A stretch of 64,000 nt of DNA, from the NCBI GenBank assembly GCA_913045325.1, contig CAJWPZ010000004.1, forward strand, positions 1-64,000, given 5' to 3'. This DNA is from an uncultured Flavobacteriaceae bacterium (lineage in GTDB: Bacteria > Bacteroidota > Bacteroidia > Flavobacteriales > Flavobacteriaceae). Every line of letters starts with the position of its first letter. The first letter of the stretch is position 1. Position numbers and translations under genes: made by a program. The notes under the pieces are model-generated. The model did no database searches. It had not been told where the DNA came from and saw only the letters and a program-made list of their open reading frames with translations. Below, piece by piece: positions 42,822 to 44,002 of the stretch.

Positions 42822-42853
42822 GGAAACCTTCCAAAATTTGGAATGTTTCCAAA
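42822..42853. promoter_or_regulatory. Tandem inverted repeats on the recA promoter (candidate operator)
   Basis: Two GGAA-N3-TTCC elements, GGAAACCTTCC (42822-42832) and GGAATGTTTCC (42840-42850), lie 18 bp apart. The second extends to the perfect palindrome TTTGGAATGTTTCCAAA (42837-42853), and the two share TTCCAAAATTTGGAA (42829-42843). They cover the -33 box of recA. It fits an operator for a dimeric repressor of the DNA-damage response; it does not resemble the E. coli LexA box. Confidence 0.6.
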
Positions 42854-42867
42854 TATTTGTATATTTG
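42837..42867 (+). promoter_or_regulatory. Promoter of recA
   Basis: TTTG (42837-42840), 19-nt spacer, TATATTTG (42860-42867): an exact Bacteroidota consensus. The predicted start near 42873 gives a 5' leader of about 115 nt. Confidence 0.75.
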
Positions 42868-42988
42868 CATTGTTCAATTACTTAAAAGTACTTGTTCACA
42901 ACCTTTAAAAAACAAGCATGGTTTTAATTGTTTCAAGTAAAACGAAGGTTTATTTTTAACATCAAAATAAGACAAAAAAAACAGCATT

Positions 42989-44002
42989 ATGGCAGATAAA
43001 GAGAAAGAGGCAAAATTAAAAGCACTAAAACTTACCCTGGATAAATTAGACAAAACATATGGTAAGGGAACCGTAATGAAAATGGGAGACCAAGCCATTG
43101 TTGATGTAGAGATAATACCCTCAGGATCATTGGGTCTTGATGTGGCCCTTGGCGTGGGTGGATATCCAAGAGGAAGGGTGATTGAGATCTATGGCCCAGA
43201 ATCTTCGGGAAAAACAACACTAACAATTCATGCAATAGCAGAGGCACAAAAAAAGGGTGGTATTGCAGCTTTTATTGATGCAGAACACGCCTTTGACAGA
43301 TACTATGCAGAGAGCCTTGGTGTAGATGTTGAAAATTTAATTATCTCTCAACCAGATAATGGAGAACAAGCCCTAGAAATTGCAGACAACCTAATACGTT
43401 CTGGAGCAATTGATATCATTGTTATTGATTCTGTGGCTGCCTTAACTCCAAAAAGTGAAATTGAAGGAGAAATGGGTGATAGTAAAATGGGATTACACGC
43501 CCGTTTAATGTCACAAGCATTAAGAAAACTAACTGGATCAATTTCTAAAACCAATTGTACGGTAATATTTATCAATCAATTGCGTGAAAAAATTGGTGTT
43601 ATGTTTGGAAACCCAGAAACTACAACAGGTGGTAACGCCTTAAAGTTTTACGCATCTGTGCGTCTAGACATAAGACGATCTACTCAAATTAAAGACACTA
43701 ACGGTAATGTTTTAGGAAATAAAACCAGGGTAAAGGTTGTAAAAAACAAAGTAGCTCCTCCCTTTAAGTTAGTTGAGTTTGACATCATGTACGGAAAAGG
43801 AATCTCTAAAGTTGGAGAAATCATTGATCTTGGTGTAGATTTTGAAATCATTAAAAAAGCAGGGTCTTGGTTTAGTTATGACGAAACCAAACTAGGTCAA
43901 GGTAGAGACGCGGTTAAAACATTACTACTAGACAACCCAGAACTTATGGAAGAACTAGAAATTAAAATAAAAGATTGTATCAAGGCCCTAGCGGGTGCAT
44001 AA
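42989..44002 (+). CDS. recA: Recombinase RecA
   Basis: DNA-strand exchange protein for recombination and the damage response. Walker [10 protein letters not shown] is at residues 69-77; Walker B region [12 protein letters not shown]; loop L2 contains [19 protein letters not shown] (19 residues). 337 aa, normal. The acidic tail of enterobacterial RecA is absent. It stands alone with its own promoter, long leader and strong terminator. Confidence 0.98.

What the first reader, a model, noticed from the sequence alone, without database searches (positions are those of the whole stretch)
42822..42867. Tandem GGAA-N3-TTCC repeats over the recA promoter
Seen: two GGAA-N3-TTCC elements 18 bp apart, linked by a shared palindrome TTCCAAAATTTGGAA, covering the -33 box of a consensus recA promoter. 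Known: many Bacteroidota lack an E. coli-type LexA box. Inference: this is a binding site for an unrecognised DNA-damage regulator, perhaps binding cooperatively as two dimers.
Basis: partly seen in the sequence, partly recalled or inferred. Interest (0 to 1): 0.75.

Follow-up and report, generated by a model that had tools for sequence, protein, structure and literature searches.

The report
LexA-type SOS operator pair before recA
The paired GGAA-N3-TTCC boxes in front of recA are almost certainly binding sites for the recently described flavobacterial LexA-like repressor, which switches on DNA repair genes after damage; the system is known, but the strict spacing of the paired sites and the recruitment of recA in this lineage add detail.

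Summary
In detail: two GGAA-N3-TTCC sites (42822-42832, 42840-42850), starts 18 bp apart, flank the -33 element of a TTTG-N19-TAnnTTTG recA promoter. Single sites are unremarkable, but a pair is not: only four places in the genome carry a (relaxed) pair, and they precede recA, umuDC, a DEDD/GIY-YIG exonuclease and the gene of an HTH-S24 (CI/LexA-like) repressor. That repressor has the Ala-Gly cleavage site and the Ser-Lys dyad, and is the only HTH-S24 protein found. This is the non-canonical Bacteroidetes LexA with its GGA-N5-TCC box, published in 2021 with EMSA and mitomycin data (PMC8565304). New here: across Flavobacteriaceae, strict pairs occur almost only at start-to-start spacings of 18-19 or 21-23 bp (68 of the 75 listed pairs with spacers of 0-25), consistent with cooperative binding of two dimers. 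The proximal site ends 9-10 bp before the -7 box in both lexA and recA. recA carries these sites in all 10 genus members examined, but hardly outside. In passing: a UmuD subfamily that has lost its catalytic dyad, and probable leaderless lexA mRNAs.

The parts
42822..42832 (.). Operator O1, GGAAACCTTCC
   Evidence: all half-site bases invariant in five close species, while the N3 centres vary
42840..42850 (.). Operator O2, GGAATGTTTCC, 18 bp downstream of O1; ends 9 bp before the -7 box
   Evidence: same 9-bp register in recA and lexA promoters of relatives
42829..42843 (.). TTCCAAAATTTGGAA, outer half-sites of O1 and O2 facing each other; palindromic except the central base
   Evidence: spacer sequence not conserved across the family, so not thought to be a separate site
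42837..42840 (+). -33 element TTTG of the recA promoter
   Evidence: sequence; Bacteroidetes promoter consensus from general knowledge
42860..42867 (+). -7 element TATATTTG of the recA promoter
   Evidence: sequence; conserved in tandem-site relatives
42872..42988 (+). recA 5' leader (start of transcription inferred, about 117 nt)
   Evidence: inference from the -7 box position
42989..44002 (+). recA, 337 aa
   Evidence: TIGR02012, PF00154
41681..42712 (-). divergent gene upstream (rhodanese/TrhO-like from its sequence, 343 aa); its start lies 110 bp from O1
   Evidence: name from general knowledge, not tested

Best explanation
The two sites are a tandem operator for the flavobacterial non-canonical LexA (a CI-like HTH + S24 autoprotease encoded elsewhere in the genome, G000:C2 about 117290-118057). 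In undamaged cells one dimer per site, probably touching its neighbour, sits on both sides of the -33 element and blocks RNA polymerase at recA. After damage, RecA filaments trigger self-cleavage of the repressor at Ala105-Gly106 by Ser144/Lys183, the sites are vacated and recA, umuDC, the exonuclease gene and the repressor gene are induced. Shown here: sites, promoter geometry, co-occurrence with the repressor gene and other damage genes, conservation, catalytic residues. Shown in the literature for a relative in the same family: binding to GGA-N5-TCC and mitomycin induction of several regulon genes. Inferred: that this protein binds these sites, cooperativity, repression of recA, cleavage.
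For: Only 4 places in the genome have the relaxed pair (0 for the reversed control): lexA (3 sites), recA, umuDC and the DEDD/GIY-YIG exonuclease. The repressor has PF01381 and PF00717; AAAGYP, Ser144 and Lys183 are invariant in 31 orthologues; the predicted fold matches phage 186/lambda repressors and LexA. It and UmuD are the only S24 proteins found in the genome. All 80 orthologues have at least one GGA-N5-TCC within 160 bp upstream, 72 have two to four. Family-wide strict pairs precede published regulon genes in 26 of 29 inspected loci. All 16 half-site bases at recA are invariant in five close species and only 1 of 6 centre bases is. The published system has the same box, repressor type and targets.
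Against: No binding or expression data for this organism. In the one species of this repressor group tested in the paper, recA was not induced by mitomycin C. Sites in front of recA are nearly confined to this genus. The UmuD-like S24 protein has no HTH, so is not a rival binder.
Confidence: 0.92

Rival explanations
1. The pair is bound by a different, unrecognised regulator that happens to use GGAA-N3-TTCC.
For: Binding was not tested here. The strict centres at recA (ACC, TGT) differ from the usual TAT/ATA.
Against: The same pairs stand in front of the LexA-type repressor's own gene in 80 species and in front of the published regulon. Published mutagenesis says the centre bases do not matter for binding.
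Confidence: 0.05
2. The two sites are independent single operators; the fixed spacing reflects the room left by promoter elements, not contacts between dimers.
For: Single-site promoters exist: 3 of 10 genus recA promoters and 8 of 80 lexA promoters. The proximal site is locked to the -7 box at 9-10 bp.
Against: The distal site keeps 18-20 or 22-23 bp although no core promoter element constrains it. umuD promoters keep the proximal site near -24 and put the distal one at either 19 or 22 bp. Spacings outside 18-23 are almost absent (5 of 75).
Confidence: 0.3
3. Chance: AT-rich promoter DNA throws up short palindromes.
For: Two strict single sites in 64 kb is ordinary.
Against: Pairs at this spacing are about 1000-fold above expectation, conserved, and found before damage genes.
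Confidence: 0.01

Closest known systems
Non-canonical LexA of Bacteroidetes, GGA-N5-TCC group (Sanchez-Osuna et al. 2021, PMC8565304)
   Same: Same box, same repressor architecture (HTH_3 + S24 with Ala-Gly and Ser-Lys), autoregulation, targets umuDC, GIY-YIG/DnaQ exonuclease and recA; family Flavobacteriaceae; the paper also reports two or more sites in several promoters.
   Different: Its main text does not describe a spacing rule, a register to the -7 box or leaderless transcripts. recA was not induced in the species of this group that it tested; here all genus members examined carry recA sites.
HdiR of Lactococcus / Streptococcaceae
   Same: CI-like HTH + S24 repressor recruited to SOS control of umuC and itself.
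   Different: Different lineage and small regulon; the paper treats it as an independent recruitment.
Phage lambda / 186 CI
   Same: Same domain order and fold by structure search; lambda operators also stand side by side 23-24 bp centre to centre and are bound cooperatively (general knowledge).
   Different: Chromosomal regulator of repair genes; operator sequence differs; spacing 18-19 or 21-23 bp.
Canonical LexA (E. coli type)
   Same: S24 C-terminal domain, RecA-dependent self-cleavage expected, controls recA.
   Different: Winged HTH (PF01726) absent; HTH_3 instead; box unrelated to CTG-N10-CAG.

Membership tests
Bacteroidetes non-canonical LexA, GGA-N5-TCC group | N-terminal HTH_3 (PF01381) plus C-terminal Peptidase_S24 (PF00717) | tested here: met
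   PF01381 34.4 bits, PF00717 50 bits, both over cut-off
Bacteroidetes non-canonical LexA, GGA-N5-TCC group | Ala-Gly scissile bond and Ser-Lys dyad | tested here: met
   A105-G106, S144, K183 invariant in 31 orthologues
Bacteroidetes non-canonical LexA, GGA-N5-TCC group | GGA-N5-TCC sites in its own promoter | tested here: met
   three sites in this genome; at least one in all 80 orthologues
Bacteroidetes non-canonical LexA, GGA-N5-TCC group | Box in front of core SOS genes (umuDC, recA, repair nuclease) | tested here: met
Bacteroidetes non-canonical LexA, GGA-N5-TCC group | Sequence orthology to the tested protein WP_075324850.1 | not tested
   that sequence was not fetched; the family-level distribution fits
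Bacteroidetes non-canonical LexA, GGA-N5-TCC group | Specific binding to the box; induction by mitomycin C; RecA-dependent cleavage | not testable with these tools
   needs bench work; binding and induction published for a relative
Canonical LexA | LexA winged-helix DNA-binding domain PF01726 | tested here: not met
   the only two S24 proteins found are the HTH_3 repressor and a short UmuD; the genome is about 90% complete

The most novel reading that the evidence does not exclude
Probability: 0.55. Interest if true: 0.45.

Novelty: new member of a known kind. Interest (0 to 1): 0.3.

Why it matters
It identifies the control of recA in this marine flavobacterial lineage and ties it to a known but recent SOS system that replaced LexA by a phage-type repressor. 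The spacing rule makes cooperativity directly testable, and the near-absence of recA sites elsewhere in the family shows how one core gene can enter an SOS regulon within one lineage.

Tried and rejected
Canonical LexA box or repressor: no canonical LexA among the S24 proteins found. The inner palindrome TTCC-N7-GGAA as a site of its own: spacer sequences vary freely across species. dinB as a target: the genome's Pol IV-type dinB locus (L190) has no GGA-N5-TCC in 3.4 kb. A strict site 27 bp before an enoyl-CoA hydratase gene (L031) is single and was left as probable chance. The other strict single sites lie inside genes, except the umuDC one. The MAFFT alignment was spoiled by loci in mixed orientation and was redone. 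The structure model is of moderate quality (mean pLDDT 62.5) and was used only for fold class.

Full report
Observation. The window holds GGAAACCTTCC (42822-42832) and GGAATGTTTCC (42840-42850), starts 18 bp apart, 5' of recA (42989-44002). The promoter reads TTTG (42837-42840), 19 bp, TATATTTG (42860-42867). O1 lies just upstream of the -33 element; O2 begins on its last base and ends 9 bp before the -7 box. One strict site per 64 kb is expected by chance. A pair 18-23 bp apart did not occur in 400 random sequences modelled on the window, and about 0.001 are expected in the genome.

What else carries the pair. The genome has 20 strict sites and exactly one other pair at 18 bp. It lies before a 256-aa protein with HTH_3 and Peptidase_S24 domains. 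A relaxed pair search (GGAANNNNTCC-N5..14-GGANNNNNTCC) returns four places and none for the reversed control: this repressor gene (three sites, spaced 18 and 23), recA (18), umuDC (19), and a gene for a DEDD-exonuclease/GIY-YIG protein (19).

What it is. A 2021 paper (PMC8565304) reports that Bacteroidetes, which lack LexA, use CI-like HTH-S24 repressors as LexA. One group, mainly in Flavobacteriaceae, binds GGA-N5-TCC, shown by EMSA and mutagenesis. Its predicted regulon includes the repressor itself, umuDC, dinB with a polymerase III alpha gene, SplB-like and UDG-linked repair proteins, the GIY-YIG exonuclease and, in several species, recA. GGAA-N3-TTCC is that box with one more fixed base per half. 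The repressor here has the Ala105-Gly106 bond, Ser144 and Lys183, invariant in 31 orthologues. It is the only HTH-S24 protein found, and its predicted fold is closest to phage 186/lambda repressors and LexA (model of moderate confidence).

Conservation. 80 orthologous repressor genes all have one to four GGA-N5-TCC sites within 160 bp of the start codon, mostly near -32, -54 and -73. In recA, six of ten genus members keep the 18-bp tandem, three have one site, and one has two sites 42 bp apart. In five close species all 16 half-site bases are invariant and only 1 of 6 centre bases is, the mark of a binding site. Outside the genus, 2 of 84 family recA upstream regions and 1 of 13 in an earlier sample have any GGA-N5-TCC, roughly chance level. 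A recA tree allows one origin of the tandem, with weak support.

Spacing. In 299 family genomes, strict pairs with spacers of 0-25 occur in 60 genomes; the reversed control gives 17 matches in 15 genomes. Of the 75 listed pairs (the list was cut), 70 have start-to-start spacings of 18-23, in two modes: 18-19 (41) and 21-23 (27), with 2 at 20. In lexA promoters the proximal pair is mostly 22-23 and the distal pair 19-20. In umuD promoters the proximal site stays near -24 and the distal one is 19 or 22 bp away. 26 of 29 inspected family pairs precede genes of the published regulon. All spacings are near two helical turns, so neighbouring dimers would lie on roughly the same face. This fits cooperative binding, which remains an inference.

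Mechanism. Repressor dimers on O1 and O2 flank the -33 element and exclude RNA polymerase; RecA filaments cause self-cleavage and release. Shown: sites, geometry, co-occurrence, conservation, residues. Published for a relative: binding to the box and induction of several targets. Inferred: binding at this promoter, cooperativity, recA induction. A caution is that recA of the tested relative was not induced by mitomycin C; the lineage-specific recA sites found here may explain such a difference, but this is untested.

Verdict. The regulator is known, hence 'new member of a known kind'. The spacing registers and the lineage-specific entry of recA are not described in the main text of the paper; its supplements could not be read.

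Noticed in passing
G000:C3:23158-23523 (L022 1159-1524, minus strand): The LexA-controlled UmuD is of a short type (about 122 aa, against about 150) that has lost the Ser-Lys dyad and about 18 residues near the C-terminus. None of 29 short UmuDs, sampled over some 20 Flavobacteriaceae genera, has both residues, while six long ones inspected alongside do; nearly all sit directly against umuC. It looks like a conserved pseudoprotease UmuD that cannot cleave itself.
   Followed up: partly
L075-L154 upstream of the repressor gene; also umuD (L022) and the exonuclease gene (L157): A TAnnTTYG -7 box ends 3-5 nt before the ATG in 63 of 80 lexA orthologues, with operators ending 9-11 nt before the box in 62. 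umuD and the exonuclease gene look alike. These mRNAs are probably leaderless.
   Followed up: partly
L055, L057 and L050, L063, L064, L074: In other Flavobacteriaceae the repressor gene is divergent from UDG-linked radical-SAM (TIGR03916) or TIGR03915 repair genes, sharing the tandem operators.
   Followed up: partly
G000:C6:25687-26127 (L190): A second Y-family polymerase (Pol IV-type DinB) has no GGA-N5-TCC nearby and seems to be outside the regulon in this genome.
   Followed up: yes
G000:C15:12986-12996 (L031 1487): A single strict GGAATATTTCC lies 27 bp before an enoyl-CoA hydratase-like gene among phenylacetate-pathway-like genes; probably chance.
   Followed up: no
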